Source: Calocera cornea HHB12733 (Eukaryota; Basidiomycota; Dacrymycetes; Dacrymycetales; Dacrymycetaceae). Taken from it: 64,000 bases of DNA. How positions within the stretch are numbered: position 1 is the first letter of the stretch; every line of letters starts with the position of its first letter. Position numbers and translations under genes: made by a program. The notes under the pieces were generated by a model. That model was given only the letters and a program-made list of their open reading frames with translations, was not told where the DNA came from and searched no databases. This document shows, piece by piece, positions 1 to 22,736 of this stretch. The stretch covers positions 65,011 to 129,010 of the forward strand of contig KV424004.1 of NCBI GenBank assembly GCA_001632435.1, written 5' to 3'.

Positions 1-279
1 GTGCTGAGAGTATACGGATAGGCGACGTACAGGAAGAATGAAATGGGTTCCAGTTGTATCCTGTCCGCCGCCGCAGATAGGGAGATCGTTCTCTGCAACA
101 ATCAACCAGATCCCATCAAGTCATGTGCACGACATAAGAGATCAATGGCATCAGTCAATGGATGCACATCTGCTACTCAGGAGCAAAATAAGGACCAACA
201 GCATTCATTCTTGACAAGCATGGTACAGAAAGACTAAGTACCAGTGGAGAAGCTGCACACAAACGGTCAACCTACGTCA

Positions 280-3200: not shown

Positions 3201-3502
3201 TCGCTGCGAGCAAGCAGTTGGCGTAGGCGAGACTGAGCCTGAGGAGTATCGTCGTCGCTGGATGGCTCCATCGCCCTTGCTCCTGCCATGAAGATGCGAG
3301 AGCGAGGAGATGGTGCCTCGGGAACGGGTTCATCGTGGTCGGTGTCAGAGGCGAAGAGGGGGTCGGGATCGGGGTCGGGAGGGGGCAGGGCAGGCCCACC
3401 AAGACCCATTGCACGAGAGATCGCGGCTTGGCGCAGGCGCTGCTGGCGCTCCTCTTCCCTCGCCCGCAGCATGGGGTCCAACGGGCGCGGGCGCGGTCCC
3501 AT
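280..3502 (-). CDS. Large protein of unknown function with C-terminal Cys cluster; possibly frameshifted
   Basis: I do not recognise this gene. Reading starts at 3502 and runs through a Pro/Ser/Ala-rich, low-complexity N-terminal part (exon 2504-3502). It continues in a helical, charged middle part (about 2451-1445) and then an exon rich in aromatic and basic residues (1397-831). After that comes a cysteine cluster, CX2CX7CX7CX2CX8C, resembling a Zn2Cys6 knot, and a Lys/Gly-rich tail ending in TGA at 280-282. Introns at 2452-2503, 1398-1444, 783-830 and 588-619 (only 32 bases) give continuous reading. Near 2125-2150 the frame changes without a good splice site, so there is either an unrecognised intron or a one-base frameshift. 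A Cys cluster at the C-terminus rather than the N-terminus would be unusual for a fungal Zn2Cys6 regulator. It may be a repeated or element-derived gene. Confidence 0.6.
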
Positions 3503-3962
3503 TGAGTGTGAGCGAAGCAGGAGGATAAGGGAGGGTATGGGAGAGGATGGGATGCGCTTGGGGAGGGGAGCGGGTATTTGTGGTGGAGACGGTGATGGTA
3601 AATGTGGACGTTGTGCAGGAGACGCGAGTCACTGTGGGCCTCATGCTAGGCGCGCGGCGAAAACAGATCCCGGGTTCCCATTTCGCTTTTCTACGCGGGC
3701 AGCAAACGAAACGAGCCACAAGTAAGTGAGTCTTAGTAATGGCATTTGATTATCTCTCTAACAACGTGCTCTAGTTGCTTCTACTACTCTATCTATGGCT
3801 GTAACTGCCAGATTAGGCTTGGTGGAGGGCGCAGCTGCCCTTTCGTGCGCTGCAATGATACTCCGGCTAGTTGGTTCCCATTTCGTCCAGGGAAAGACAG
3901 CCTATATTTGGCGGATGTCCTCATTGCGTACGGCTGGCAGAACAAGACTAATAGCAAGAAGA
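3503..3962. other. Spacer upstream of the unknown gene
   Basis: This stretch lies before the start of the minus-strand gene. It carries two plus-orientation copies of the CCCATTTCG motif (3673, 3873). I see no convincing coding sequence. Confidence 0.5.
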
Positions 3963-4657
3963 NNNNNNNNNNNNNNNNNNNNNNNNNNNNNNNNNNNNNN
4001 NNNNNNNNNNNNNNNNNNNNNNNNNNNNNNNNNNNNNNNNNNNNNNNNNNNNNNNNNNNNNNNNNNNNNNNNNNNNNNNNNNNNNNNNNNNNNNNNNNNN
4101 NNNNNNNNNNNNNNNNNNNNNNNNNNNNNNNNNNNNNNNNNNNNNNNNNNNNNNNNNNNNNNNNNNNNNNNNNNNNNNNNNNNNNNNNNNNNNNNNNNNN
4201 NNNNNNNNNNNNNNNNNNNNNNNNNNNNNNNNNNNNNNNNNNNNNNNNNNNNNNNNNNNNNNNNNNNNNNNNNNNNNNNNNNNNNNNNNNNNNNNNNNNN
4301 NNNNNNNNNNNNNNNNNNNNNNNNNNNNNNNNNNNNNNNNNNNNNNNNNNNNNNNNNNNNNNNNNNNNNNNNNNNNNNNNNNNNNNNNNNNNNNNNNNNN
4401 NNNNNNNNNNNNNNNNNNNNNNNNNNNNNNNNNNNNNNNNNNNNNNNNNNNNNNNNNNNNNNNNNNNNNNNNNNNNNNNNNNNNNNNNNNNNNNNNNNNN
4501 NNNNNNNNNNNNNNNNNNNNNNNNNNNNNNNNNNNNNNNNNNNNNNNNNNNNNNNNNNNNNNNNNNNNNNNNNNNNNNNNNNNNNNNNNNNNNNNNNNNN
4601 NNNNNNNNNNNNNNNNNNNNNNNNNNNNNNNNNNNNNNNNNNNNNNNNNNNNNNNNN
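3963..4657. other. Assembly gap (run of N)
   Basis: All 695 positions are N, so nothing can be said about their content. The gap falls inside the motif-rich stretch, as would happen if repeated sequence prevented assembly. Any reading frame across it is meaningless. Confidence 0.99.
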
Positions 4658-4883
4658 CGCATCCATGCAATATCAATATAACCCATTTCGCTCGTCTTGA
4701 GAGGAAACAAGACCTGGTAAGTCGAAAACATGTAGCGAGCACATTTGGCAGCCGGCCAAATAGTTGGTTCCCATTTCGCTCGACTACTAGGGACCGTACA
4801 CGCGCACTTAAGGTGCGGGTCCCATGTGGGGACTGATCCGCACCCTTTCAGCAAACCCTTCTTTATCTACTGATCGCTCACGA

Positions 4884-5614
4884 TCAACAGCTAAGCTGTT
4901 GAAGATCGGCACCCATTTCGTTCCCAGTGGCGGGCATGAGCATTTCCGGAGCCTTCCAGCGCTCATTACCGATGGTGCGGCTGAGCCCCTGTGAGGCTGG
5001 GTCGTCAGGGATATCGGGCTTGGTACCCGTCAATCCAAAGTCCGCGAGAACAGCTCGGTGAGTGATGTCGACCAGGACATTACTCTGACAATGACATTCA
5101 GTTGTCACAATGGCGCGTCCCTGAGAACATCACAAACCGCTTTCAAGTCCCCGTGAATGAGCGGAGGCTGAAAGGCAGAATGGAGATACATTAAGCCCTG
5201 GGCAATATCGCGCAGCTACCATATGGATTAGACCCCCACCATAAATCACTGCCTAGAATGCTGCCTACCAGGAGGGAGCGGGGTCGTTCTGCATTATTCT
5301 TGAGGTAGTTGATCGCATGTCCATGCTCCAGCCATGGTGCAACCATACCGAACATCCTCAAGCTGTGAGATTCGACCATGCAGATGCCAGACAACCTCAG
5401 GATATTATCATGCTGTAACACCGCCCAGCTTATCAACTCCCGTGCAAGATGCTGTTTGGAGGATCAGCTTACCCTATTTGAAGATGAGTGTGGAAAGAAC
5501 GCAACGCACTCGATCTGCCTTCCTCTTTTCCTCCTCTGGGTCCCGGATGAGGTCTGCCAGCATAGTCTTCATGGCTACTACTTGACCTCGATACCTTCCG
5601 GTTCATATTTCACC
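4884..5614 (-). pseudogene. Protein kinase relic A, catalytic part (cut by the copia element)
   Basis: On the minus strand this holds most of a protein kinase domain. From N to C it has a VAMK-type lysine motif (about 5565), HDNILRLSG (about 5400), DIAQGLMYLH and HGDLKA (about 5150), NVLVD, ADFGLTG (about 5040) and WKAPEM (about 4950). Short introns fit near 5421-5480 and 5099-5151. The HGDLK form of the catalytic loop and the overall style suggest the tyrosine-kinase-like group common in Agaricomycetes. It is broken in two ways. An in-frame TGA at 5603-5605 replaces the Trp seen at the same place in relics B and C, and a retrotransposon separates it from its first exons at 10556-10822. The C-lobe is missing toward the assembly gap. 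Confidence 0.8.
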
Positions 5615-5898: not shown

Positions 5899-5910
5899 GG
5901 TTATGAGCCC
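5899..5910 (+). promoter_or_regulatory. Primer-binding site matching the initiator tRNA-Met anticodon arm
   Basis: GGTTATGAGCCC directly follows the left LTR. It is complementary to GGGCTCATAACC, the anticodon-arm sequence of eukaryotic initiator tRNA-Met. Priming by such an internal tRNA half is known for Drosophila copia and Ty5. The ATG of this site, 5903-5905, is also the first ATG of the gag-pol frame. Confidence 0.8.
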
Positions 5911-8900
5911 TGCTAGCTCTTCTACGATGTCTGCTATATCCGACTTCAAAGATCTGAAGATAGACCGACTCAAGGACGATGGCTCCAACTGGACTACGTA
6001 CAAGGACATCATGCTTAATGCATTCGACCGACGCATGCTGGGCAGACATGTCCGTGGCTCAGTCAAACCACCCCAGAGCTTCGTCATCCGAGACGATACC
6101 TACTACAAGGTCATCCCTACCACTACCACGACTACCAGCATGGAGCGTCAGAGCGGTACAGAGGAGTCCAGAGAGGTCGTACTGTCAGAAGATGAGGCGG
6201 ACAAGCTAGAGGAGGCTTGGGAGAAATACCGAGCAAAAGAGGCATCCATCCGAGAGATTGTCTACATGACAATCAGCCCGACAACACTCATTCAAGTCAA
6301 GGATGCTCCTACGGCTCACGAACTATGGGTACAACTATCGGCTATGCACGAGAACAAAGGCTTCGACACGATATCTACCATGCATCGACGTATGCAGGAT
6401 ATACGATGTAATGATGACCAGAATCCGCGCGAGACCATATCCGAGATGTACACCTACCGTGACCGATTGGCGCAAATGGGCGATAAGGTCGATGACGAGC
6501 TATTCATTACCCGCATACGACTTGCACACCCATCCTACCGAGACGCTATCCGAGTACTGGAGAACGCAGTCCGAGCACTGCGTCCTACCAACCCATCCGT
6601 CAAGCTCACACCGGATATGATTGTATCAGCCATCTATGAGGAGTACGACCGACGTGCTTCAGAGAAAGAGGCCGATCAGGCACAGTCCAACGCAGCACTT
6701 GCAGCCGACTCCCGATTCAAAGCGAAATCATACGGTACCAAGAAAACCAATAAGCCCAAGTCCGACAAACACTGTACGAACTGCAACCGTGACGGACACC
6801 TTCTTGCTGATTGCTGGGCACCAGGCGGACCAAAGGAGGGCAATGCCCCCAAACACTTTCGTTTCAAGAAGTCTACGACCGGAGCCACTGCCATATCCAA
6901 CAACGGCAATGTCGCACTCACTATGACTGCCATCCAGCCTACTACTGCATCGTCCGACACAGTACCAGAGAGTACAGACGTCTACCATGGTGTTATACTC
7001 GATTCTGGAGCAAGCATACATATATGCCCCGACCGAGCGCTGTACATCAACTACCATGCGATAGAGCCAATACCAATCACTTCGGCCGATGGACATGCAT
7101 TCCGTGCAGTTGGGCAGGGTGATGTGAAGTTGTCCTTACCAATGGGCAAAGGCAAGCCCGCAACTACCGTCACATTACAGAAGGCACTGTACACACCGGG
7201 CACAGCCTATACCATGATATCAGTCCCTATACTCGATCGTAAGGGATTCAAGACTGTCACCGAGGACGGAGAATGCACCGTATACACACCACGTCCCAAC
7301 CGTACCATTGTTGGACGAATACCACTCAAAGACGGACTCTACCGGGTGGCTCCCGGGTACAAGATCCAGTCACCGACTGCAGCCATATCTACTACGGCCC
7401 ATTCCATGTCACTCTCAAAGGCTCATGAGATCCTCAATCACATCGGATTCTCTACAATCAAGGACATGATCGCAACAGGCGCTGTTCATGGTCTACGGAT
7501 TGATCCCAGCTCTATGAGCGAGCATTGTGATACATGCATCAAGTCCAAAGCAATCCGTCTTCCATTCCCCAAAGTGAGCGAAAACATACGCTCTGACCAC
7601 TATGGCGCAAAGATCAACGCAGATCTGTGGGGACCAAGCGAGGTCGAATCTCTTGGTGGAGCACGATACATGCACGTACTTGTTGACTCATTCAGCCGTG
7701 AAGTCCGACTTGACTTCTTACCCCAGAAGTCCGATGCTCTCAAATCATACCAACACTACAGTGCTTGGGTGAAAAAGCACCGGAACGAACGCGGCATCAC
7801 CATCTTTGGTTCAGACCGAGGCGGAGAGTATACCTCCAAGGAGTTTGAGGCTTACCTCAAAAAGGAAGGAACCGTTCGACACCTCACTACACACGATTCA
7901 CCACAATCCAATGGTGCAGCAGAGACAATGAACCGGATTCTTGTTGCAGACATGCGAGCTATATTGGAAGCATCCGGACTACCCAAATTTCTATGGGCCG
8001 AAGCACTCCATCATGCCGCATACATACGAAACCGGACCACTACCAGACACTTACCAAGTGGTACCACACCATATGAGGCCGCTACCGGGCATAAACCCAA
8101 CCTTGCGGGCATGCTCGCTTTTGGCGCCAAAGTATGGGTGAAGAATCTGAACGCAAGCAAGCTCGAACAGCAAGCCATTGAAGGCCGATTCCTCGGCTTC
8201 GATGAAGAATCAAAGGGTTATCGCATTTACTGGCCCGGAAAGCGAAGGGTAACAGTCGAAAGAGATATGTATCCCACCAAAGAGGCTCTAATGTCACCGG
8301 AGACCGAGCCCGTGACAATTGAGGGAGGGAATGAAGATATCAATCCACCCAACCTCAGTACTACACCGGATTCCACCATAGAGCACCAGACTGAGCCAGA
8401 CCCGGCCATACTGCCCGAGACTCAAAACCAATCACACCGGAGTGACGGACTGATACCTGCAAATGAGAATTATGGACGAGGCAAGCGGAATACCGGGTAC
8501 ACACCAGGACGATACCGTAACCTTGCTGGAGCCACTGCTGAACTGTCCGAGACCGAGCTACAGGCAATCATCGAAGATGCCGGATTCGAAGTCAACCTAC
8601 CATATGCTGAAGTTGCCGCTACCGCCAACTACGGTGGAGAACCAAATACACTGGACGAGGCACTTGCCCGACCAGATGGTGAAGGCGAAGAATGGCGCGC
8701 AAGCGTGAAGGCCGAACTCGAACAGATTGAGAAACTCGGAACGTGGACCATTCTCGAAGCACCACCAAACGTGAACATCGTAAGCAGTCGATACGCATTC
8801 CGGATCAAGCGAGACGAGCACGGAAACATCACAAAGTACAAGTCCAGACTTGTTGCCCGCGGATACACTCAGCGTCACGGAATAGACTACCATGAGACAT

Positions 8901-10279
8901 ACGCACCAGTTGTGAAACCAACCACCCAACGAGTACTCCTGGCAATGGCTGCAATCCGAGATGACGTGATCCGACAAGCAGATGTGAAGAATGCATACCT
9001 GAATGCACCAATGACCGAGGACGTCTACATGGAATTACCGCCAAGATACGAGGAGTTCAATGAGGACTTTGCCAAAGCAAGCAGAGATCGGACCAGTAGA
9101 CGCCTGGTAGCAAAGCTGAATAAAGGCCTATACGGTACTAAGCAAGGTGGACGACTCTGGTACCAGCACTTACGGAAGACATTCGAGACGCTAGGCTTCA
9201 AGGTTGCACAAGCGGATACTGCAGTGTTCTACCGAATACAGCCAGATCCGACCCAGTATGTCATTGTTGGAGTCGCTACAGACGATTTCACCATGATATC
9301 GCCAGACGAGCAACAAATTGCTGAACTCCTATCGGATATGAACAAGCACTTCGAGCTCGTAGACCTTGGTAACATCAACTGGCTACTTGGCATCCATATC
9401 ACGCGAAATCGGAAAAAGCGTACCATTACACTCAACCAGAAGACATATATTGAGGACATTGTTGCACGTATGGGACTTGAGACCGCAGCTCCAGTGGCAA
9501 CACCGATGGAAGCTGGATTGGATCTCAGTTACAACTCGCCAGCGTTATCGCCAATGGTACTCACAACAAGTCAACACGCACAGTATCGCCTAGGACTCGG
9601 AGCTCTCATGTATGCAGCAATCATGACACGGCCGGACATACAGTACGCAACCACATACCTGTCGCAATTCCTCGAGAAACCACACACAAGCCATATGAAA
9701 GCACTCACTCGTGTTTTCCAGTACCTGAAGAGTACTGCAGAGTACGGACTAGTACTGGGTGATACCAAGTCCGACAATAGCATCATCGGGTACTCGGATT
9801 CCGATTGGGCAAGCCAGCCCCACAGGCACTCAATAGCAGGATACGCATTCTTCCTTGGATGCGGTACGATCTCATGGAGTTCTAAAAAGCAACCAATTAT
9901 CAGCCTATCAAGCACCGAGGCTGAGTATGTGGCACTCACTCATGCTACCAAGGAGTTACTGTGGCTCCGCCAGCTCACAGCTGAACTGTTCCCATCCAAC
10001 ACCATACAGCACCCTACAACGCTCTATTGCGATAATCAGGGCGCTATTGTACTCTCAAAGGATGCTACGTACCATGCAAGGACGAAGCATATCGACGTCA
10101 GATTCCACTATATCCGCCAGGTCGTGAACGATAAGGCAATGCATGTCGAATACTGCCAGACAGACAGTATGATTGCAGATGTGTTCACCAAAGCACTCGG
10201 ACGCACAAAACTCGAGAGGTTCACCTCCATGCTGGGTATCAGAGGCGAGCAGACCGGTATACCACTTGAGGGAGGGTGA
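5903..10279 (+). CDS. Copia gag-pol polyprotein
   Basis: A 1,458-residue polyprotein with no stop or frameshift. The gag part carries a zinc knuckle, CX2CX4HX4C, at about residues 291-304. The protease has DSGAS near residue 368. A GAG-pre-integrase zinc region (HX3H, CX2C) precedes the integrase, whose catalytic D, D and E sit near 573, 638 and 674 in a DX35E arrangement. Reverse transcriptase follows, with its catalytic aspartates in ATDD near residue 1126 where most copia elements have YVDD. RNase H has SDSDW, STEAEY and CDNQGA blocks at about 1300, 1338 and 1376. The first ATG lies in the primer-binding site; ATG codons at residues 9 and beyond are alternatives. The TGA stop is the first three bases of the right LTR. 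There is no separate gag stop. Confidence 0.95.
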   Translation: MSPASSSTMSAISDFKDLKIDRLKDDGSNWTTYKDIMLNAFDRRMLGRHVRGSVKPPQSFVIRDDTYYKVIPTTTTTTSMERQSGTEESREVVLSEDEADKLEEAWEKYRAKEASIREIVYMTISPTTLIQVKDAPTAHELWVQLSAMHENKGFDTISTMHRRMQDIRCNDDQNPRETISEMYTYRDRLAQMGDKVDDELFITRIRLAHPSYRDAIRVLENAVRALRPTNPSVKLTPDMIVSAIYEEYDRRASEKEADQAQSNAALAADSRFKAKSYGTKKTNKPKSDKHCTNCNRDGHLLADCWAPGGPKEGNAPKHFRFKKSTTGATAISNNGNVALTMTAIQPTTASSDTVPESTDVYHGVILDSGASIHICPDRALYINYHAIEPIPITSADGHAFRAVGQGDVKLSLPMGKGKPATTVTLQKALYTPGTAYTMISVPILDRKGFKTVTEDGECTVYTPRPNRTIVGRIPLKDGLYRVAPGYKIQSPTAAISTTAHSMSLSKAHEILNHIGFSTIKDMIATGAVHGLRIDPSSMSEHCDTCIKSKAIRLPFPKVSENIRSDHYGAKINADLWGPSEVESLGGARYMHVLVDSFSREVRLDFLPQKSDALKSYQHYSAWVKKHRNERGITIFGSDRGGEYTSKEFEAYLKKEGTVRHLTTHDSPQSNGAAETMNRILVADMRAILEASGLPKFLWAEALHHAAYIRNRTTTRHLPSGTTPYEAATGHKPNLAGMLAFGAKVWVKNLNASKLEQQAIEGRFLGFDEESKGYRIYWPGKRRVTVERDMYPTKEALMSPETEPVTIEGGNEDINPPNLSTTPDSTIEHQTEPDPAILPETQNQSHRSDGLIPANENYGRGKRNTGYTPGRYRNLAGATAELSETELQAIIEDAGFEVNLPYAEVAATANYGGEPNTLDEALARPDGEGEEWRASVKAELEQIEKLGTWTILEAPPNVNIVSSRYAFRIKRDEHGNITKYKSRLVARGYTQRHGIDYHETYAPVVKPTTQRVLLAMAAIRDDVIRQADVKNAYLNAPMTEDVYMELPPRYEEFNEDFAKASRDRTSRRLVAKLNKGLYGTKQGGRLWYQHLRKTFETLGFKVAQADTAVFYRIQPDPTQYVIVGVATDDFTMISPDEQQIAELLSDMNKHFELVDLGNINWLLGIHITRNRKKRTITLNQKTYIEDIVARMGLETAAPVATPMEAGLDLSYNSPALSPMVLTTSQHAQYRLGLGALMYAAIMTRPDIQYATTYLSQFLEKPHTSHMKALTRVFQYLKSTAEYGLVLGDTKSDNSIIGYSDSDWASQPHRHSIAGYAFFLGCGTISWSSKKQPIISLSSTEAEYVALTHATKELLWLRQLTAELFPSNTIQHPTTLYCDNQGAIVLSKDATYHARTKHIDVRFHYIRQVVNDKAMHVEYCQTDSMIADVFTKALGRTKLERFTSMLGIRGEQTGIPLEGG
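10265..10276 (+). promoter_or_regulatory. Polypurine tract
   Basis: CTTGAGGGAGGG lies immediately before the right LTR. Its purine run GAGGGAGGG is where plus-strand synthesis would be expected to start. It is also the last coding sequence of the polyprotein. Confidence 0.75.
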
Positions 10280-14154: not shown

Positions 14155-14158
14155 TGCA
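14155..14158. repeat. Possible target-site duplication TGCA, left copy
   Basis: TGCA precedes the left TCAGCAAAAAC terminus and also follows the right terminus (22732-22735). The tetramer is its own complement, so it may instead be part of a 15-base inverted repeat, TGCATCAGCAAAAAC. Sequence alone does not decide this. Confidence 0.5.
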
Positions 14159-14169
14159 TCAGCAAAAAC
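14159..14169 (+). repeat. Left terminal inverted repeat of the Plavaka element
   Basis: TCAGCAAAAAC is the exact complement of 22721-22731. With the flanking TGCA the inverted identity is 15 bases. Confidence 0.75.
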
Positions 14170-14345
14170 CGGGGTTGCGGCGCGGCGCGGCAGACGCGCT
14201 GCCGCTCGAGAAGCGGGTGTCGCAACCCCCCAAGTCTGCCGCGCGGCAGACTTGGGAAGAAGCGCCTGGCGTGCGCCCAGACTGGGGGTGCCGCGCCAGA
14301 CGCTTCCGGAGCTCAGGGCTCTCTGGACGGATGCGGGGAGCCAGG
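14170..14345. repeat. GC-rich subterminal region with perfect palindrome
   Basis: A very GC-rich stretch. It includes a 22-base perfect palindrome at about 14245-14270 (arm AAGTCTGCCGC). Related CTGCCGCGCGGC-type sequence occurs inside the right end (22660-22715). Such subterminal palindromes are plausible transposase or host-factor contact sites. Confidence 0.6.
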
Positions 14346-14667
14346 ATTGCCTGATAAGGCAATCTTGGCACCATACTAGATAGTGTAGCAGCGCCGCTGG
14401 TGCACATCATGTATATTATCAATAGATACATATTTAATAATACATTCTGCCCGATATCTGTGTGCTTGGCCCCAATCTATGCTCGCTGACAGTTGCAACT
14501 GTCACTCACCGCTGACAGTTGAAACTGTCACTCATCATCTTTCTCATTATCGAAAGCACTAGAGGGAATGCGACCCCCACGAGTCCCTTCGAGGTCCTTT
14601 GAGGTGACCCGTGCATGTGCACTGGTTCAAGGCTGAGTACTGTTTGTTGATTGAATAGCAATGTCAC
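14346..14667. other. AT-rich left arm of the element with four octamers
   Basis: No gene is visible. Four octamers lie at 14487-14530 as two inverted pairs, followed by plain spacer up to the 3' end of the DUF6532-type gene. Confidence 0.5.
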
Positions 14668-16204
14668 TCACCAGGCTTGCTCAAAGATCCACACTTGAAG
14701 GGCGGCGCTTGCATTGGCCTTCTTGGACTTGAAAGCGTGCAGAGTGGCCAGATGATCTTCATACCGCCATCTCTCAATGGAGCGCCAGTCCTTGGCCTCC
14801 AACACTCCGCTCTTCCACTCGTCCAGGGCCCATTCAACCTGTCTCAACATCGTCAGTAGAGCTTAAGACAGGCAAACTGTCACTCACCGCCGCCGCCGAA
14901 ATGGCAATCGTCTGGAACGGAACTGGGTTGTACAACGCCTTCATGGCAATGCCCAATGCATCCTTATCTCGAAACCAGACCACATTAATAACCTCAGTCA
15001 GGGCGGGAGATCGATAGATGCGGCTGGTTGGATCTGAAGCATCCTACAAACTGTCAGTGACAGTTTCGCTGACAGTTGAGAACTTACTTGGTAAAGGAAG
15101 GCCATTCCGTCCAACAACTTGTCCACGCCCTTGATAATGAGGCTCGATGCATTCTGAGCATGGGAGTCGCAACTGGAACGCAAGCTTTCAGTCCACAATG
15201 GAGTGATGTAGTGGCTTTTGACAGCCGCCCTCGCAGCCTCAACTATCCGCGTCCGGAATTTCGAAGTAGTCTGACCCAACTGGAAGAAGCATAGTCAGTA
15301 TGTGACCAAGTGGACTGGCCCACACTTACATAGGCCGTATGGGTTTGCTTCAAAGGAATATCCAGACGGTGTTCTCTCTGCGCGGTGCGCAAGGCATCCT
15401 GAATGAGCTCGCCCTTCTCGGACCCTTCAGCATAAGGGTTGAGGGCACCCAGCAGCCCCCAATACACCTTTTTAGCTTCTCCTAAGAGGGTCTGTTCAGC
15501 GGGCATATGGTTCCGAATGAGGGCTTTGCCGACAATGCGTTGAGGAGGTGTGGGTGAGGGACTACGAGGCCGTTTGCGCCCGCTGACAGTTTGGTTACTG
15601 GGTTGAACTGTCAGCAGCCATACATCAAGAAGCTTAAACACATACTCTATCGGTGTCATCACCTCTGAAGAGCTGGAGCTGGAGCCCAAGATGGGACCTG
15701 GGCGCAATGCGGCACTGTCAGCAACATGTACTGGCAGCGCTGACAGTTCAACTGTCAGCGCTGACAGTTGGCAGCGCTGACAGTACATACCCGAGTTTGT
15801 GCTTGTGCGTGGGCGCCTGGGACTCCGTTGACGAGTCAGCTTATGCTCCTGTACATTGTCAGTATCATGTTTCGGTGGAAGAGTTAGATAATTACCCGAG
15901 CAATTCTCTGGGGATTGACTGGTGACAGTTCCAGCTCCGTCTCAGATTCTTCTTCGTTAGGGGGATTGAAGTCCGGATCATGCGCAGAGTGTGATTCTAT
16001 ATCACTATCTTCTCTGATATCCAGAGAAGAGGTTGCTCTGACTGGCCGACTAGGGCCGGGGACTCTGACAGTAGATGGCCGTGTTGTGCCTGCTGACAGT
16101 TTGAGTGACAGTTCTTGATACTTGCCCCAATGCTCACCAGATGTAGAGGCACGGGTCCCATACAGATTCGATATCGTCTGGGGACGATATCGGGTGTTGT
16201 ACAT
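14668..16204 (-). CDS. DUF6532-type protein carried by the transposon
   Basis: Starts at the ATG at 16202-16204 (MYNTRYRPQT). The first exon (to about 15898) encodes an acidic, Ser/Pro-rich region. Further exons follow a spliced, octamer-rich stretch and run to about 14668. The second half matches the style of DUF6532, a family common beside Agaricomycete transposases. Visible blocks are FRTRIVEAARAAVKSHY, KLLDGMAFLYQ, SPALTEVINVVWF, NPVPFQTIAISAAAVEWAL and DEWKSG. Introns fit near 15850-15897, 15720-15790, 15600-15650, 15280-15330, 15043-15090 and 14850-14890; several consist mostly of the octamer. The exact C-terminus is uncertain because the last frame ends at a GGTGAGTGA that could be a splice donor. 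Function is unknown. Confidence 0.65.
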
Positions 16205-16946
16205 GATGCAAGAATGGGAGGGGGTTGGGGGGGAGCCAAATTGATGACGGAGGAGGAGGAGGGGGAAGATGCAGACTGCGCCGGGAATCAGACGGGCCTT
16301 TATGTGCCGTCTGTCTGCCATGCCGGAAAACAAACAATGGCACTGTTGCACGTGAGGAAATGATATACTCCACCCGGAAGCTGATCACATTCCAGGCTTG
16401 GCTTGCGACACATTACACGTCGCACCCATGAGATTCCATTCAAACTGTCACTCCCCAATAGGGAGCGGTCAACATGAGGTATGCCCATCTGGCAAGCTCA
16501 TCCCAGCCCACAGTCAACCTCTTTGGACGGTTGGCCCTCCCAGTGAGCATTCCAGCGGATGGTACTTAGTTAATTCTACAAACAAGCATGGCCCAGGCCA
16601 CTGACAGCCCTCGCGTGTCGCGTGCCTACAGGACCCTGACCCCGCTGATGGCCCCCACTTTAAATGACGCTTCTCAGGGACCATCAATCAACAGACCCTG
16701 AGATGCATACATTACGCGCGTCATGATAGGGTTCATCTGGCGCAAACTGTCACTGACTTGATTGCCACAGTCAACACCATTTGCATGGTACTACGCAGCA
16801 ATGAGAATAGTCATTTGAGTGAATGAAAGAAGGAGAGTCTCCCTCTACAAACCATTCAAGTTTGGGTTGGCAGTAGTAGGCACGGTTGGAACTGTCAGCG
16901 AAACTGTCAGCACCTTTACCACCACCTCTAGACGTCTGCTTCACCA
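16205..16946. other. Divergent spacer between the DUF6532-type and transposase genes
   Basis: Lies between two divergently read genes and should hold both promoters. It contains five octamers and a block at 16625-16725 with AGGACCCTGA, TGACGCTTCTCAGGG and CCCTGAGATGC followed by ACGCGCGTCATG. That block returns inverted at 20000-20090. Confidence 0.55.
16625..16725 (+). repeat. Internal inverted repeat block, left copy
   Basis: The words AGGACCCTGA, GACGCTTCT and CCCTGAGATGC...ACGCGCGTCATG recur in inverted orientation at 20000-20090. The transposase gene lies between the two blocks. AGGACCCTGA occurs again at 20249 and a similar GACCCTGAG at 22650. A role in expression is a guess. Confidence 0.6.
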
Positions 16947-19940
16947 TTGTTGTTTCGTTCTATGGGTCACATTTCAACTAACAACATCTGGAAGGCTAAG
17001 AAACCCTTGGGTTGCTTGTGGTGCACCAAGACTTTCGAGAGTCACTCCAATCTCAATCGGCACCTGGGAAATGCTCCGCGCTGCCGGGCGGCAGAAACAC
17101 AACATCAAGCTGAAATCCTTAGTCGTCGGTCACACTTCCCAAACTGGTTGGAACCGCCCGACGTCGCGCCTGAAGACGAGCCTCGGTGGGACAATGAAGC
17201 GAGTGACAGTTGCAGTTACAACGTTATGGACGCCCAGTGGCCCAACCACAATATGCATACAACTGTCAGCGGCGCACCCGGCACCGCTGCACCATCCCAC
17301 CCATCCCCGTCAACACACACTGTCAGCTACATTGAGGAGTTCCCAGGTGCAGCTGGAATCAAACTGTCATCAGCAGCATGCGCCTTTCAAGAGCAGTTGG
17401 ACTCATGGGGGGGGGTCGCTGACAGTTCACGTCACTATGGCGCATTTCTAACTGCCCAGGAGTGGGAGCTGGCCAAATGGTTCAGAACCAGTGGGATCAG
17501 CAATACCAAGCTGGATGCGCTGCTTGATACGGCAGTGGTACGTGTTTAGATGCATTGTGGGACCCCAACCGTGCTAACTGTCAGCCAGCTCAGAAACCGC
17601 GAGGGGGCCACCTTCCACAACTCCAGGTCATTATTCCAGCTGGTAGACAGCCTCCCCCAGCCACCATCATGGATTTGCAAGCGCTATTCGATTGAATCAT
17701 CGATTCCGGAGAGTCCCCCCCAACAGGTGGAGATGTTTCATCGTGATCCCATTGAGGTGGTCCGGGAGCTTCTGGGCAACCCTCTCTTTGCCAATGATAT
17801 GAAATATACGCCTAGAAGAGTCTATACAACCTCAGAGAAGCAAGAGCGACTATACTCTGAGATGTGGGATGGTGATTGGTGGTGGGAAACCCAGGTGGGA
17901 ATATTTTGGCAAACTGTCACCCCAACTGTCACTGACAGTTTCGGACAGGAAAAGTTACCCAGTGGTGCAACCATTGCACCCCTCTTACTGGCAAGCGACA
18001 AGACCACTCTGTCACAGTTCACCAGCAATACCAAGGCATATCCCGTCTACCTGTCTGTGGGAAACCTCAGTAAAACCCGGAGAAGAAAGCCAAACCAACA
18101 TGGAATGGTTCTTGTGGCCTACCTCCCGGCCAACGGCCTCAAAGCTCTCATTCCAGATGAAAATAAGCGACGCTCTTCAGAGCGTCAGCTATTTCATGAC
18201 TGTATGAGCGACCTCCTGCAGCCTCTCATTGCGGCGGGTCGGGAGGGGGTACCTATGACATGTGGCGATGGTTATGTCCGAAGAATTTTCCCCCTGTTGG
18301 CCGCCTACATTGCCGATTATCCTGAACAATGTCTCATCGGTTGCTGCAAATATGGATCTTGTCCCCGTTGCATTGCTCCTGTCACCCAGAAAGGAGAATA
18401 TGAAGAGTTTCCACTCAGGAAACCATCCGACCTCGACCCGTGGCTTGGTGACAGTTCGGGTGACAGTTTGTCAGGGCAAGCCTTACACGACTACAAAACC
18501 TTCTGCAAATCCCAGCATCTGTTACCTGTAATCAGACCCTTTTGGATCAACCTTCCTCACGTCAACATCTATAATACTTTCACCCCGGATGGGTTGCATG
18601 AGCTACATAAAGGCATCTTCAAGGATCACCTTCTCAAGTGGTGTATTGATCTTTGCGGCAAAGAAGAGCTCGACAATCGATTCCGCTGCGTTCCACCCCA
18701 TTCGGACCTCAAACACTTCAAATTGGGTGTGTCCAGTCTCAGCCAGACCACCGGAAAAGAACACAAGCACATGGAGAAGGTGTTGATTGCCCTTCTTCAG
18801 GGTTCACCTGGAACTGTCAGCGCCCAAACCCAACTGTCAGCGCGCGCCATTCTTGACTTTATCTATCTGTCACATCTCACTGCACACTCGGACACGACTC
18901 TCAGACACATGGAGCAGTCTCTGCAGCAATTTCATGCCAACAAGTCACGCGGGTTTGCGAAGACAGCCAAACCCATTGACTGGCACGGCATCCACAAACT
19001 GCACAAGCTCATGCACTACGTCCAGTCCATTCGCCAATTGGGTCCTCCAGATAACTTTGACAGTGAGCTCCCTGAGCGCTTGCATATCGACTATGCCAAG
19101 GATGGCTATCGTGCTGGAAACCGGTTGGACATCACCCACCACATGACCATATGGCTGCGCCGGTTTGAAGTGATCCAAAAGCAAACACAATTCCTTGCCT
19201 GGATCGATCAGCTCAAGAGAACTCCCACATTTGAGAACGTTCCAGCAGAGATTCCGGCCACAAACCCGCGAGAACTTGCCCGTTGGCCCCCATTCAGCAA
19301 GGTGACAGTTGGCCAACTGTCAGCCAAATTCGAAATCCCCAACATCATTCCCCTCTTGCATGAGTTCATCGACCAACATCTGACAGAATGCACATGGAGA
19401 CCCTCAGAAGACACCCGCTTTGACTGCTATGTCAAGCTGATCAAGCAAGTCCCACCTCCTCCAGGGCTGCTGACAGTTTTGCATAATGTCATTCATTGTC
19501 GACCTGGGCGTGCAGCTTTTGGACGACAGCCTGCCAGACGACCTCAATACGATACTGTGGTGATCCAAAGCGACTCCAAGAACCGTCAGGCTGGGCTGAC
19601 AGGGGTATCATTTGCCCGACTGAGATGCCTACTACAGGTGGCCTCACCCAACGATCTCCCTACTGGAGTGGTTTTTGCTTATGTTGAATGGTTCAGTGAC
19701 CCCCAAGCTGCAGGCAACAAGCTCTCAGAGCTGACCAAGATGAAGCCAGGGGGAAGAAGGAGAATTGGTGAGATTATTTATGTGGGAAGCATTGTCCGAT
19801 CTTGCCACTTGATCCCCTCATTTGGACGGACAGTACCCCCATCCCTGGAGTCAACCACAGCACTGGACACTTCTAATTCGTTTATTATCAACCCTTACAT
19901 AGATCCCCATACATTCTTGGCGCTGTATAACTTTTCCTAA
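16947..19940 (+). CDS. Plavaka-type transposase with N-terminal zinc finger
   Basis: Two exons, 16947-17537 and 17589-19940, join in phase over a GTACGT...CCAG intron and give 980 residues. That is the usual size for this family. Near residues 25-50 is a zinc finger, CLWC...HLGNAPRC. Then come the blocks I associate with Plavaka transposases: WWWETQ, SGATIAPLLLASDKTTLS, YPVYLSVGNLSK, HGMVLVAYLP, DYPEQCLIGCC followed by CPRC, and DGLHELHKGIFKDHLLKW. Catalytic acids of the CMC superfamily are likely in the ASDK and later blocks, but I cannot place them surely. The octamer is read inside the protein several times, for example as TVTPTVTDS at 17910-17945. No disabling change was seen. The start could also be the Met at 16962. 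Confidence 0.85.
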
Positions 19941-20403
19941 TAGGATGGAGTGCAACTGTCAGTGCTGACAGTTGCGCTGACAGTTGTAGCCGAAATAGGC
20001 AAGGACCCTGACTACCCCGCAGAAGCGTCAGGGTCCTGAGCAGATTGAGTTGCATGACGCGCGTTAAGCATCTCAGGGCCCTGACGGTAATGTGAATAGT
20101 CTTTTGCCTCTGTTGTAGGGTGACAGTTGGCGACAATGAAACTGTCACCTTCCCACAAGTTTTTTTTTAAAAAATATTTGGAGAAATAAAACACTTTTGG
20201 CTGTGTGAAATTGGTACATACAGTGCATCAGAGTCCAGCACCAATCAAGCAGGACCCTGAGTGGCAGTGATTATCCGCCTGATTCCGTGTCGCGCGACGC
20301 GCCCAACTGTCAGCAGATCTTCCAACATCTATCCCTGCGCCCTCTTTTACCACTGCTTAACGCACACCCCTCCTCAACTCCCACTTTTCTATACCTTTTC
20401 AAC
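19941..20403. other. Spacer between transposase and third transposon gene
   Basis: Contains six octamers, the inverted copy of the 16.6 kb block at 20000-20090, a T-rich run near 20160 and another AGGACCCTGA at 20249. It should hold the 3' end of the transposase transcript and the promoter of the next gene. Confidence 0.5.
20000..20090 (-). repeat. Internal inverted repeat block, right copy
   Basis: Read on the minus strand it gives CCCTGAGATGC, then ACGCGCGTCATG, AGGACCCTGACGCTTCT and a further AGGGTCCTT-type word. These match the block at 16625-16725 in rearranged order. Confidence 0.6.
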
Positions 20404-22298
20404 ATGTCTGCATCCCGCTCCCCTTCCCCAGTGGAGAATGACTGGTCGTGTAAGTACTTATTTTACAAACTGTCAGGTGACAGTTGGGCTGACAGTTGAC
20501 AGATTTGGAACACCATTGCAGCCTTATTGTCAGCGGTGACGAATGGCTGTATACGGTCTATGTTCCAGCACCCTCCTTCCTGTCTGCAGAGCTTCCTCCT
20601 GCTGAAATGGGGCTACCTGGGGATCTGGCAACTGGAGAAGAGCCCACCGATGTCTTCATCAAGGATGACGAGGGCTGGCGCGCGTTGGGCAAGGTCTCGG
20701 GGCGCGGCTTTGAAAGATTCCCTGTGGCATCAATTGCCAAGAAGACTAGGCTGGTTCTGGGGGGGCCTTTGCCTGTCTGGCGCCCAGATGGTGCTGCTAG
20801 ACAGCTGGCTAGCAAGCTGAGGAAGCAGGGGAAAGGTGAGTGACAGTTTCTAACCCTAACTGTCACCGATTCTGACTGTCACTTAGCCACACCTCCCATC
20901 ACTCCCAGGAAGGCATCCAAGCGTGCCAGGAGGCCTTCCAGCAGTCCCCCTCCCGAGCCAAGCAAGAAGACGCGCGTGCGCCGTGAGCCGTCACTCAACA
21001 AGGTGCAGATGGTCGAAACTGTCACCCCTCGAACTGTCAGCGGTCGAACTGTCAGCGGTCGAAATCGTCGCTCCCCGCTCCTAGAACCGCGCGCTGACAC
21101 TCCTGAGAGTGAGGAGGGGATGATCATCGATGAGGAGGAGCTCTCCAGCAATGATGAGCTGGTCAGAGTCCTCATCAATGAGGATCTCTTCAACTATCAG
21201 CCGCAGGCTCTCCAAGATGCCGATGCTATTGCTGCCCTGGAGAAGAATGCCACTGAATATGGCAACGATTTCCTCATCCCGCTGCGTACATACTGGGTCG
21301 AGAACTTCCCCAATGCGACGACGAATGGCTACGCCGGCGTGCTCATCCTGGAGGCCCTCATGGGTCTGGAATACAAACTGTCAGCAGTGGTTGGGAGGCG
21401 CATTGCCGACTTCCTCTCCAACCCTGTGATGCGCCCCACGGTCGATCATGTCCTCGCCGATCTCATGGATGGGCCCAAGAGTGTGAAGGTCCAAGAGCCT
21501 CACAAGAACCATACGGGGTACAATCACCTCCGAACTGTCATTCTGTCACTGATGACACACTCTGCCGGCGACATTCCTACAAGCTCCGTGCCTGTGTTCT
21601 CAGCATTCGATATACGCTGCAACAGCCGGGATGGTCTTTCAACATGCAAGCTGCGGGTCCCACGTGACTACACTGACAGTTGGGAAACTGTCACTCCAAC
21701 GCCGCAGGAAGATGCCGAGCCTGCTTCTGTCATCACCCCGGGTGGGACTCTGTCCGATTTCCATTGGGATGCTCCTGGATGCTCCTATGGTGTAGTCCAC
21801 ATCGATGGTCTCAGCAATGTGAGCCCAGCCAAGCTGTGGCTGAAGGCATCGGCGACGCCTCACAACAGGGCCGTGATGAAGGCATTTGGCCACTACAACC
21901 GCAGTTCTCAAATGTCTGCGGTTGCCATACCTTTGCTGGAGAACATTTCTTACTGGCTGGTCACCCCCCAGAACTGGGAGAAGGAGGGAGGAGCATTTGT
22001 GGAGGCGGGGGCGTTCCATTTGGTGCTGACATTCCAACTGTCAGCACATTGTACTTTCCGGGCATACAACCGCGCAGAGTGGCCGGCTATGAAGAAGTTC
22101 CTTAAATGGATCATTCACGACATTTCCAGCCAAGGTGCCATCGACAGATCGGATGAAGCAATGCTGATTGTGGAGGATTTGAGGGTGTGGAGGGGTTTGG
22201 GCACCGGAAATGCCAAAGATGACCGATGGGTGGCCCGCCAGTTGGTCAGAGTCAAGGCTCTGGAACAGGCTGCCAAGGCTCAGGCAGAAGAGAACTAG
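20404..22298 (+). CDS. Transposon-borne protein of unknown function, possible JmjC/cupin-like fold
   Basis: Exons 20404-20449, 20503-20835 and 20887-22298 sum to 596 residues without a stop. The N-terminal third is basic and Ser/Pro/Arg-rich. The octamer appears there three times and is read as ETVTPRTVSGRTVSGR. The C-terminal half looks folded. It includes FHWDAPGCSYGVVHIDG followed by KLWLKA, which resembles the HxD and following strand of JmjC or cupin oxygenases. I cannot place a matching distal histidine, so this is only a suggestion. Both introns consist largely of the octamer. The neighbouring transposase gene suggests cargo or an accessory transposition protein. Confidence 0.6.
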
Positions 22299-22720
22299 TA
22301 GATAGTATACCTCTTGATATGATCATACCTTTTTCTGATGAATAATACCTTTTTTGAACGCTTCAACATGTTTCCCAAGGGGTGACAGTTCAAACTGTCA
22401 CCCTAACTGTCAGCACCCCTGTACCCCTCCAGTCTGGCGTTTCCAGCAGGTTTCAGACTCTGGAAGCAAGCCTCACACTTAAAGTATTTGTTATTAAACA
22501 TATTTCATTACTAGATAAACTAACTACTGGATATAAAATAATGCTACAAAAAAAAAAAACCCAGACGCTGCAGCAGCGTCCGGGGGCATGTTGAAGTGAG
22601 CGCCCGAGGACCCCTACAGGGTGCCGCGTCCAGCGCACTGCACCGCCACCGACCCTGAGCTGCCGCGCGGCGGGGGCTGCGGCGCGCGGCAGACCCTGGG
22701 AGGGTTAGCTGCCGCCTTAT
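22299..22720. other. Right arm of the transposon
   Basis: Three last octamers at 22383-22411 are followed by an AT-rich stretch with a run of A at about 22549-22559. After it comes a GC-rich, partly palindromic part (GACGCTGCAGCAGCGTC near 22564-22580; GCCGCGCGGC near 22662). No gene is visible. Confidence 0.5.
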
Positions 22721-22731
22721 GTTTTTGCTGA
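22721..22731 (-). repeat. Right terminal inverted repeat of the Plavaka element
   Basis: GTTTTTGCTGA is the exact complement of 14159-14169. It is followed by TGCA at 22732-22735. Confidence 0.75.
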
Positions 22732-22736
22732 TGCAA

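What the first reader, a model, noticed from the sequence alone, without database searches (positions are those of the whole stretch)
14487..22411. A transposon saturated with one octamer (TGACAGTT/AACTGTCA) in exons, introns and spacers
About 57 copies in 8.6 kb, against about 0.3 expected and one seen in the other 55 kb. Subterminal transposase-binding repeats are known in CACTA elements, but those cluster at the ends. Here copies run throughout, are often in inverted pairs, are written into the coding sequence of all three genes, and make up most of several introns. The word can supply a branch-like CTGAC and an acceptor CAG, so it may also influence splicing. TGACAG is a known core site of TALE homeodomain proteins, so a host or element factor coating the whole element is conceivable. 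The last two points are inference.
Basis: partly seen in the sequence, partly recalled or inferred. Interest (0 to 1): 0.88.

Follow-up and report, generated by a model that had tools for sequence, protein, structure and literature searches.

The report
Recognition word shared by unrelated transposons
Jumping genes in a jelly fungus carry dozens of copies of a short DNA word at roughly nucleosome-sized steps, kept by selection even inside their protein genes, and unrelated jumping genes in the same genome carry the same words, which suggests a shared system for marking themselves to a DNA-binding chromatin factor.

Summary
In detail: 57 exact TGACAGTT/AACTGTCA copies lie in an 8.6-kb Plavaka DNA transposon (14157-22733) and one in the rest of the window; about 0.4 are expected. 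Element copies 73-77% identical keep 56-82% of aligned words, against 15-19% of other octamers. Synonymous codons inside words are almost frozen, so selection acts on the DNA. Word clusters sit on a ~170-bp grid: all 28 gaps lie within 40 bp of a multiple of 170 (mean deviation 15 bp; 0 of 50,000 random placements as small). The word is not Plavaka-specific: a Ty3/Gypsy retrotransposon of the same genome is also rich in TGACAGTT. Two other Plavaka-like families carry other words (GGTTCCGA; ACTTGACA), and a related Gypsy family carries GGTTCCGA. Each of the three Plavaka-like groups is tied to one JmjC-like protein family (the third only through its word). Best reading: a word-addressed chromatin (anti-silencing) system like plant VANC/VANDAL, exploited by both element classes, with words in presumed linkers. 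The site code is shown by sequence; the binding protein, nucleosome placement and anti-silencing effect are inferred. Splicing and TALE-factor ideas find little support. The 170-bp period was not found for the other two words.

The parts
14157..22733 (.). Plavaka (PlavakaB-type) DNA transposon, 8577 bp
   Evidence: Ends CATCAGCAAAAAC / GTTTTTGCTGATG; PlavakaB termini CATCA..TGATG per PMC12730594
14157..14169 (+). left terminal inverted repeat
   Evidence: the window copy shows no matching 2-bp TSD (TG left, CA right)
22721..22733 (-). right terminal inverted repeat
14487..22412 (.). 57 exact copies of TGACAGTT/AACTGTCA in 31 clusters (words within 40 bp merged) on a ~170-bp grid; extended form R-S-TGACAGTT (A/G at -2 in 56 of 57, C/G at -1 in 55 of 57)
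14640..16350 (-). gene 1 region (exon structure not modelled; one piece weakly DUF6532-like, E 0.0014, below the cut-off); a homologous piece (44% over 52 aa) exists in the Plavaka L035, which has no strong word
16962..19940 (+). Plavaka transposase gene (PF18759, E 2.4e-113; C2HC-type finger at 17013); 11 words in exons
17895..17954 (+). short intron region holding 3 words (exact splice sites not settled)
   Evidence: in several copies the frame is broken near here (1 TGA in the matches from residue 119 of C100, C154, C158, C229, C280)
20404..22298 (+). third gene: JmjC-like (Fe(II)/2-oxoglutarate dioxygenase-like) protein, 3 exons; HxD codons at 21762-21770, later His codon at 22017-22019; 8 words in exons, 5 in its introns
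20450..20521 (+). intron 1 of the third gene with 3 words (several splice models permitted)
20836..20886 (+). intron 2 of the third gene with 2 words

Best explanation
TGACAGTT is an address tag read on double-stranded DNA by a sequence-specific chromatin factor. The element carries tag clusters at nucleosome-sized steps (multiples of ~170 bp), presumably in linkers, so that the factor can coat its whole length. I think the factor is, or works with, the element's JmjC-like oxygenase (third gene) and counters silencing marks over the element. Related Plavaka-like families use other words (GGTTCCGA, ACTTGACA), and Gypsy retrotransposons have acquired the word of one or another family and so share its protection. 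Shown by sequence: the word code, its conservation at silent sites, its register in TGACAGTT elements, its presence in unrelated element classes, and different words in related families. Inferred: the identity of the factor, linker placement, the anti-silencing effect, and the direction of free-riding.
For: Selection on DNA: nine loci 73-77% identical keep 56-82% of aligned window words (9/16 in L010 to 23/28 in L011; L009 25/31), against 15-19% of other 8-mers. In ungapped columns this holds in exons (L009 13/15, L011 11/11, lowest L016 5/8; others 19-22%), the gene-1 region (L012 7/9 v 16%) and non-coding DNA (L009 12/16 v 16%). Same-amino-acid degenerate codons inside words are identical in 19/20 (transposase v C100) and 15/15 (third gene v C294), against 309/522 and 212/313 outside. 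Both orientations occur (25/32), which argues against an RNA-strand signal. Register: gaps near multiples of 170, 0 of 50,000; R=0.63, 0 of 20,000; exon and non-coding clusters share a phase (9 bp apart). Different class: Gypsy pieces L018 and L024 carry 21 and 9 words. Cis function: four short elements with Plavaka-type ends (L019-L022) carry 9-11 words. Word-family match: third-gene homologues lie with GGTTCCGA x23 (L029) and ACTTGACA x10/x12 (L030/L031). Gypsy family B (C25, C192) has GGTTCCGA x5 in 1360 readable bp and x7 in 1001 bp, 0.04 expected each. Gypsy A and B place their different words at near-homologous sites (three clusters, offsets 25, 8 and 34 bp; about 1.4% by chance). JmjC: invariant HxD..H and KLWL in 6 sequences; homologue P0001 named JmjC by a source; all 6 PDB hits of P0001 are JmjC demethylases, 5 of them KDM2A/JHDM1A, best E 0.006.
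Against: No binding, methylation or nucleosome data. The 170-bp period is absent for GGTTCCGA (p 0.60) and ACTTGACA (p 0.93). For Gypsy L018 it is nominal at the fixed period (p 0.011) but not with the period left free (p 0.09-0.30; best period 84), and 7 of 9 (L018) and 4 of 5 (L024) gaps lie within 40 bp of a multiple, where about half would by chance. Two words found only in copies are off the window's grid (18913, 19865; roughly 90-105 bp from the nearest cluster). A basidiomycete with mapped nucleosomes has a 300-nt dinucleosome peak (PMC3376729), which suggests a step shorter than 170. No Pfam hit for JmjC in the third protein, the window's JmjC segment alone has no JmjC hit in PDB, nor does the C132 homologue, and both structure predictions failed (mean pLDDT 37.7 and 30.6). 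The Gypsy pieces seen encode no JmjC protein, so a host factor would do as well. The JmjC-word link rests on three families, and for ACTTGACA the transposase matches lie on other contigs. A Plavaka without a detected JmjC gene (L035) has a weak candidate word (AATCGAAC x7), and window 0-7500 has one (CCCATTTC x9) with no JmjC gene found. The nine compared loci represent essentially one divergence. In the Gypsy comparison two B words have no A counterpart.
Confidence: 0.5

Rival explanations
1. A host transcription factor or chromatin organiser binds the words; Plavaka and Gypsy elements converged on host sites, and the JmjC-like gene is unrelated to recognition.
For: The same word in a DNA transposon and in a retrotransposon whose sequenced pieces encode no JmjC protein. 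TGACAG is a TALE-type core (recalled).
Against: Needs several host factors, one per word; homologous Gypsy families would have to settle on the very words used by different Plavaka families. The genome shows no excess of the word beyond what the elements carry.
Confidence: 0.33
2. The words are binding sites of the Plavaka transposase (or a TnpA-like partner) used for transposition, as in CACTA subterminal repeats.
For: Plavaka is placed with CACTA-type elements (PMC12730594); the transposase has a C2HC-type finger; short non-autonomous elements with Plavaka-type ends keep words.
Against: Words run through the interior and none lies in the outer ~320 bp of either end; a Gypsy element, which does not use this transposase, has them; Plavakas L035 and C100b have a similar finger but no strong word.
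Confidence: 0.08
3. Mutational or recombinational spread of a short repeat (slippage, microhomology) without function.
For: Some words form short direct repeats 12 or 15 bp apart.
Against: Conservation 3.7-4.6 times that of other octamers, silent-site freezing, register, and the same word in unrelated elements.
Confidence: 0.02
4. The words act in RNA: as intronic branch/acceptor signals or in small-RNA targeting.
Against: Both orientations inside exons and spacers, in a Gypsy LTR and in short elements.
Confidence: 0.03

Closest known systems
VANC / VANDAL sequence-specific anti-silencing of Arabidopsis (PMC5735166, passages seen; PMC10398659, abstract and outline seen)
   Same: Short family-specific motif repeated in the element; related families have different motifs; VANC6 motifs also occur in AT9TSD1, a TE unrelated to VANDAL; an extra protein is encoded by the element.
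   Different: VANC motifs lie in non-coding DNA as tandem repeats; here they are also in exons by codon choice, on a ~170-bp grid (one word only), shared with LTR retrotransposons, in a fungal Plavaka with a JmjC-like protein. Anti-silencing is untested here.
TET/JBP-encoding fungal DNA transposons (PMC12730594; abstract, sections 3.2 and 4.2 and passages seen)
   Same: Fungal DNA transposons, Plavaka included, encoding a Fe(II)/2-oxoglutarate dioxygenase proposed to counter silencing.
   Different: The protein here resembles JmjC/KDM2 rather than TET/JBP. The words 'JmjC' and 'subterminal' do not occur in that text; in the parts I saw no word code is described.
CACTA/EnSpm subterminal repeats bound by TnpA (recalled; one search gave a search listing only)
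   Same: Many copies of a short word in both orientations.
   Different: Not subterminal, and found in an unrelated retrotransposon.
Epe1, JmjC anti-silencing factor of fission yeast (search listing with starts of abstracts)
   Same: A fungal JmjC protein that opposes heterochromatin.
   Different: A host protein, localised mainly through Swi6/HP1 according to the abstract of PMC6576747, not by a DNA word.

Membership tests
Plavaka (PlavakaB) | Plavaka transposase domain PF18759 | tested here: met
   E 2.4e-113
Plavaka (PlavakaB) | Termini CATCA..TGATG | tested here: met
Plavaka (PlavakaB) | 2-3 bp target site duplication | tested here: inconclusive
   Window copy TG/CA, no match; four short relatives show 2-bp TSDs: L020 TG, L021 GA, L022 GA, L019 TT (one end of L019 is mutated)
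VANC-type anti-silencing system | Short motif repeated in the element and differing between related families | tested here: met
VANC-type anti-silencing system | Motifs in non-coding tandem repeats | tested here: not met
   Words also in exons; only 4 of the 8 short arrays found by TRF hold words
VANC-type anti-silencing system | Homologous VANC protein | not tested
   VANC was not compared directly; the third protein has no Pfam family and the best PDB relatives of its homologue are JmjC
VANC-type anti-silencing system | Protein binds the motif and removes silencing marks | not testable with these tools
   needs binding and methylation assays
CACTA subterminal repeats | Repeats concentrated at the element ends | tested here: not met
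   Spread over 14487-22412, none in the outer ~320 bp of either end
JmjC dioxygenase | HxD...H metal triad | tested here: met
   Invariant H263, D265, H348 in 6 sequences (roles of the residues recalled)
JmjC dioxygenase | Sequence similarity to known JmjC proteins | tested here: inconclusive
   P0001 v KDM2A E 0.006 over residues 310-383; no Pfam JmjC hit; profile, L029 protein and window segment give no JmjC hit in PDB
JmjC dioxygenase | Double-stranded beta-helix fold | tested here: inconclusive
   Models too poor; no fold search run

The most novel reading that the evidence does not exclude
A chromatin password system: each password is a short DNA word written at nucleosome-linker spacing across a whole mobile element, inside genes through synonymous codons. 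Plavaka-like transposons coding for a JmjC-like oxygenase define the passwords, and Gypsy retrotransposons copy them and switch in place from one to another, so that unrelated elements of one genome form password guilds that escape silencing together.
Probability: 0.35. Interest if true: 0.97.

Novelty: new variant of a known kind. Interest (0 to 1): 0.9.

Why it matters
Word-addressed anti-silencing by transposons is, to my knowledge, established for one plant group. A fungal case with words frozen in coding sequence, a nucleosome-scale register, and matching words in DNA transposons and retrotransposons would make word-addressed anti-silencing, and its exploitation by unrelated parasites, directly testable, and would offer natural sequence-addressed chromatin proteins.

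Tried and rejected
Structure of the third protein: two AlphaFold jobs with two sequences each gave unusable models, so no fold search was run. Homologue searches: none for the window protein, only P0001 with the 6-sequence alignment (only the 7995 candidates sharing most words were scored) and with P0001 itself. Viral contigs: no relative of the transposase. One-mismatch near-words: 10 against 4.6 +/- 2.8 (maximum 14) for 200 shuffled words; 4 lie in clusters and the other 6 are not on the grid, so the word is nearly all-or-none. GC content by distance from word clusters shows no clear nucleosome signal. A first finger pattern matched nothing, not even the window's own finger, and was loosened. 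Literature searches without a hit: nucleosome repeat length + Basidiomycota (62), transposon-encoded + JmjC + fungi (63), TGACAG + TALE homeodomain + fungal (78). One search listed 8 of 15 papers, none of the 8 holding 'JmjC domain'. Passages of PMC4938642 and PMC2897762 gave no figure that I use. That no such word code is in print is only as good, in a library that lacks most subscription papers. Neutral repeat spread and transposase-only binding were rejected for the reasons given under rivals.
Full report
What is there. TGACAGTT/AACTGTCA occurs 57 times between 14487 and 22412 and once elsewhere in the window (shuffles mean 2.05 for the whole window, largest 7). The carrier is a Plavaka DNA transposon, 14157-22733, with CATCAGCAAAAAC inverted ends and a PF18759 transposase. 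It has a minus-strand gene 1 region, the transposase gene 16962-19940, and a third gene 20404-22298. The genome (G000, 32.1 Mb, 302 contigs) is most likely Calocera cornea HHB12733: a protein found is annotated from that strain and lies on a contig of 266,826 bases, the length of C24. Genome-wide the word is not in excess (1002 copies, reversed control 995). Inverted word pairs up to 26 bases apart occur in 61 places against 1 for the control; in the 100 of 122 rows shown, only C120:17 and C174:60510 lie on contigs that I did not look at.

Selection on the word. Six contigs hold other copies of the transposase part (C78, C100, C154, C158, C229, C280; 67-87% amino-acid identity over the matched stretches), and C294, C6 and C78 of the third gene (79-80%). 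Nine loci align over 2.2-4.9 kb of the element at 73-77% nucleotide identity. They keep L009 25/31, L012 24/32, L013 23/32, L011 23/28, L015 20/30, L014 21/30, L016 13/17, L017 13/16 and L010 9/16 window words (56-82%), while 15-19% of other 8-mers are kept. In ungapped columns, words against other 8-mers are, for example: L009 exons 13/15 v 19%, non-coding 12/16 v 16%; L012 exons 8/8 v 22%, gene-1 region 7/9 v 16%, non-coding 9/12 v 13%; the lowest are L016 exons 5/8 and L017 exons 6/8, v 19%. These loci are mostly one subfamily, so this is about one divergence counted several times. Codons lying wholly in a word (in either copy), with the same amino acid and a degenerate code, are identical in 19/20 (C100) and 17/18 (C78) for the transposase and 15/15 (C294) and 15/15 (C78) for the third gene, against 309/522, 310/523, 212/313 and 209/309 outside; Fisher p 0.0007, 0.002, 0.007, 0.007 (codons partly in a word were left out; the transposase stretch includes the three words of the short intron region). 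Selection therefore acts on DNA. The word has preferred flanks: A/G at -2 in 56/57 and C/G at -1 in 55/57; the Gypsy words show the same bias (-1 C/G in 20/21 in L018 and 9/9 in L024). In the window, L018, L024 and L020 together, the commonest close arrangements are direct repeats 12 bp apart (17) and inverted pairs (+ then -) 10 bp apart (7).

Register. With words within 40 bp merged, 31 clusters have R = 0.63 at 170 bp over 7.9 kb (0 of 20,000 random placements with best period 140-210), and pair-distance scores are far outside the null. Of gaps above 110 bp, 27 of 27 (merge distance 25 or 40; three gaps of 57, 101 and 58 bp left out) or 28 of 28 (merge distance 65 or 100; none left out) lie within 40 bp of a multiple of 170; the mean deviation of 15-16 bp was matched by 0 of 50,000 placements, for fixed or best period. 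Exon clusters (13, R 0.59) and non-coding clusters (18, R 0.68) have nearly the same phase. No tandem repeat with a period near 170 was found. At the fixed period 170 other TGACAGTT elements agree nominally: L018 p 0.011, L020 0.010, L019 0.018, L022 0.019, L024 0.037 (L019, L020 and L022 are relatives). With the period left free, L018 is not significant (p 0.09-0.30, best period 84), while the Plavaka copies L009, L011 and L012 are (p at most 0.02), though not independent of the window. The other two words show nothing at 170: L029 p 0.60, L031 p 0.93. The value 170 is near the 160-175 nt mean mononucleosomal DNA of 12 Saccharomycotina and somewhat above what a 300-nt dinucleosome peak of the basidiomycete Mixia suggests (passages of PMC3376729). 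The value for Calocera is unknown to me, so linker placement is inference.

The same word in a retrotransposon. L018 (C14) and L024 (C172) show no match of 60 bp or more to the Plavaka element and no match to its frames, but hold gag, protease, integrase and chromodomain of a Ty3/Gypsy element. They share an LTR-like stretch of 289 bp, 98% identical. They carry 21 and 9 TGACAGTT words, three of each in that stretch. The middle of this element was not seen. Four short elements with Plavaka-type ends (L019-L022) carry 9-11 words.

Other words, same protein family. Distant homologues of the third protein (24-32% identity) were found at C132:2349, C24, C153 and, as a fragment, C132:88310. Around the first copy GGTTCCGA occurs 23 times in 7.5 kb (0.34 expected) on both strands; around C24 and C153 ACTTGACA occurs 10 and 12 times (0.11 and 0.16 expected). 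The C132 contig start matches the ends of C84 (100% over 565 bp) and C76 (99% over 378 bp), about 2 kb from Plavaka-like transposase matches, and that stretch of C84 carries GGTTCCGA five times in 2.8 kb. CACTTGACAC clusters around the Plavaka-like matches of C13, C21, C98, C128 and C140, which ties the third word to a Plavaka-like transposase, though on contigs other than those of the JmjC-like gene. Control stretches: five Plavaka stretches without a detected JmjC-like gene (L035, L026, L027, L028, C100b; L027 and L028 look like copies of one another) have best scores of 16.4, none, 7.6, 7.1 and 8.1. The word families score 105 (window), 66 (L029), 40 (L031) and 35 (L030); shorter word-bearing pieces score 39 (L018), 24 (L036), 19 (L024) and 16 (L020). 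Ten of eleven background stretches score 6.6-12.9; the eleventh, window 0-7500, scores 25.7 (CCCATTTC, see below).

Matching Gypsy families. A gag search gave 21 matches: a second copy of the same family (C249, 100%), seven relatives 55-61% identical, and distant ones. GAGGTTCCGA sites fall on or beside two of the relatives, C25 (99538, 99942, 100623, and farther off 93553 and 93715) and C100:81/762. The C25 stretch has GGTTCCGA five times in 1360 readable bases (941 read N) and one TGACAGTT. C192, a 3' end of a Gypsy element that matches C25 at 97% over 139 bp and L024 at 71% over 549 bp, has it seven times in 1001 bp (0.04 expected each); two words of each lie in the shared stretch. None of the listed places falls on the relatives at C1, C37:117523 or C153:58387; the listings stop at 100 places, which covers these contigs for GAGGTTCCGA and CACTTGACAC but only C1 for TGACAGTT. 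I could not read those relatives. Aligned over the 3' region (63% identity), Gypsy A has TGACAGTT clusters at columns about 586, 759 and 977 and Gypsy B has GGTTCCGA clusters at about 611, 767 and 943, plus single B words at 128 and 357 without A partners. Five random B clusters come as close to all three A clusters in 1.4% of trials. So the places seem roughly kept while the word differs; three clusters are a small number.

The third protein. Six homologous sequences share HxD, KLWL and a later His. P0001 is called JmjC domain-containing by one source, and its six PDB matches are all JmjC demethylases, five of them KDM2A/JHDM1A, E 0.006-0.18. Pfam gives nothing (in one search only DUF3670 at E 0.15 for 2 of 6 members), the profile, the L029 protein and the window segment give no JmjC match in PDB, and structure prediction failed. 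I call it JmjC-like.

Interpretation. Shown: a selected, double-stranded, nearly exact site code; whole-element distribution; register for one word; sharing across element classes; word differences between relatives. The most economical reading is recognition by a sequence-specific chromatin factor. VANC of Arabidopsis is the closest functional precedent, including a VANC6 motif in an unrelated TE (passages of PMC5735166). The main rival is one host factor per word. Transposase binding alone does not explain the Gypsy elements.

Noticed in passing
window 40-4919: CCCATTTC occurs 9 times (0.19 expected; 7 of them as CCCATTTCG), spread over 4.9 kb on both strands among ORFs without a clear family; possibly a further word-bearing element cut by the window start and an N gap (3963-4657)..
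   Followed up: partly
window 5903-10279: Ty1/Copia-type polyprotein frame (1458 aa; RVT_2, rve, gag).
   Followed up: no
L035 2493-7669: A Plavaka without a detected JmjC-like gene has AATCGAAC 7 times (0.26 expected): a weak candidate word..
   Followed up: partly
G000 C29:67489, C40:186275, C49:126964, C113:43937, C116:33508, C147:60942: Pairs of CACTTGACAC exactly 37 bp apart at six places: probably another repeat family carrying the third word.
   Followed up: no
window 14155-14156 and 22734-22735: The window Plavaka copy has no matching 2-bp target site duplication (TG/CA), unlike its short relatives.
   Followed up: partly
L009, L011-L016, L018, L030, L031: Many contigs end in or near these elements, so full copies of the other families could not be seen in one piece.
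   Followed up: no
window 14172-14260 and 22560-22715: Both word-free ends of the element look GC-rich (by eye); 78-99 bp of the left one are 86-91% identical in short relatives.
   Followed up: no
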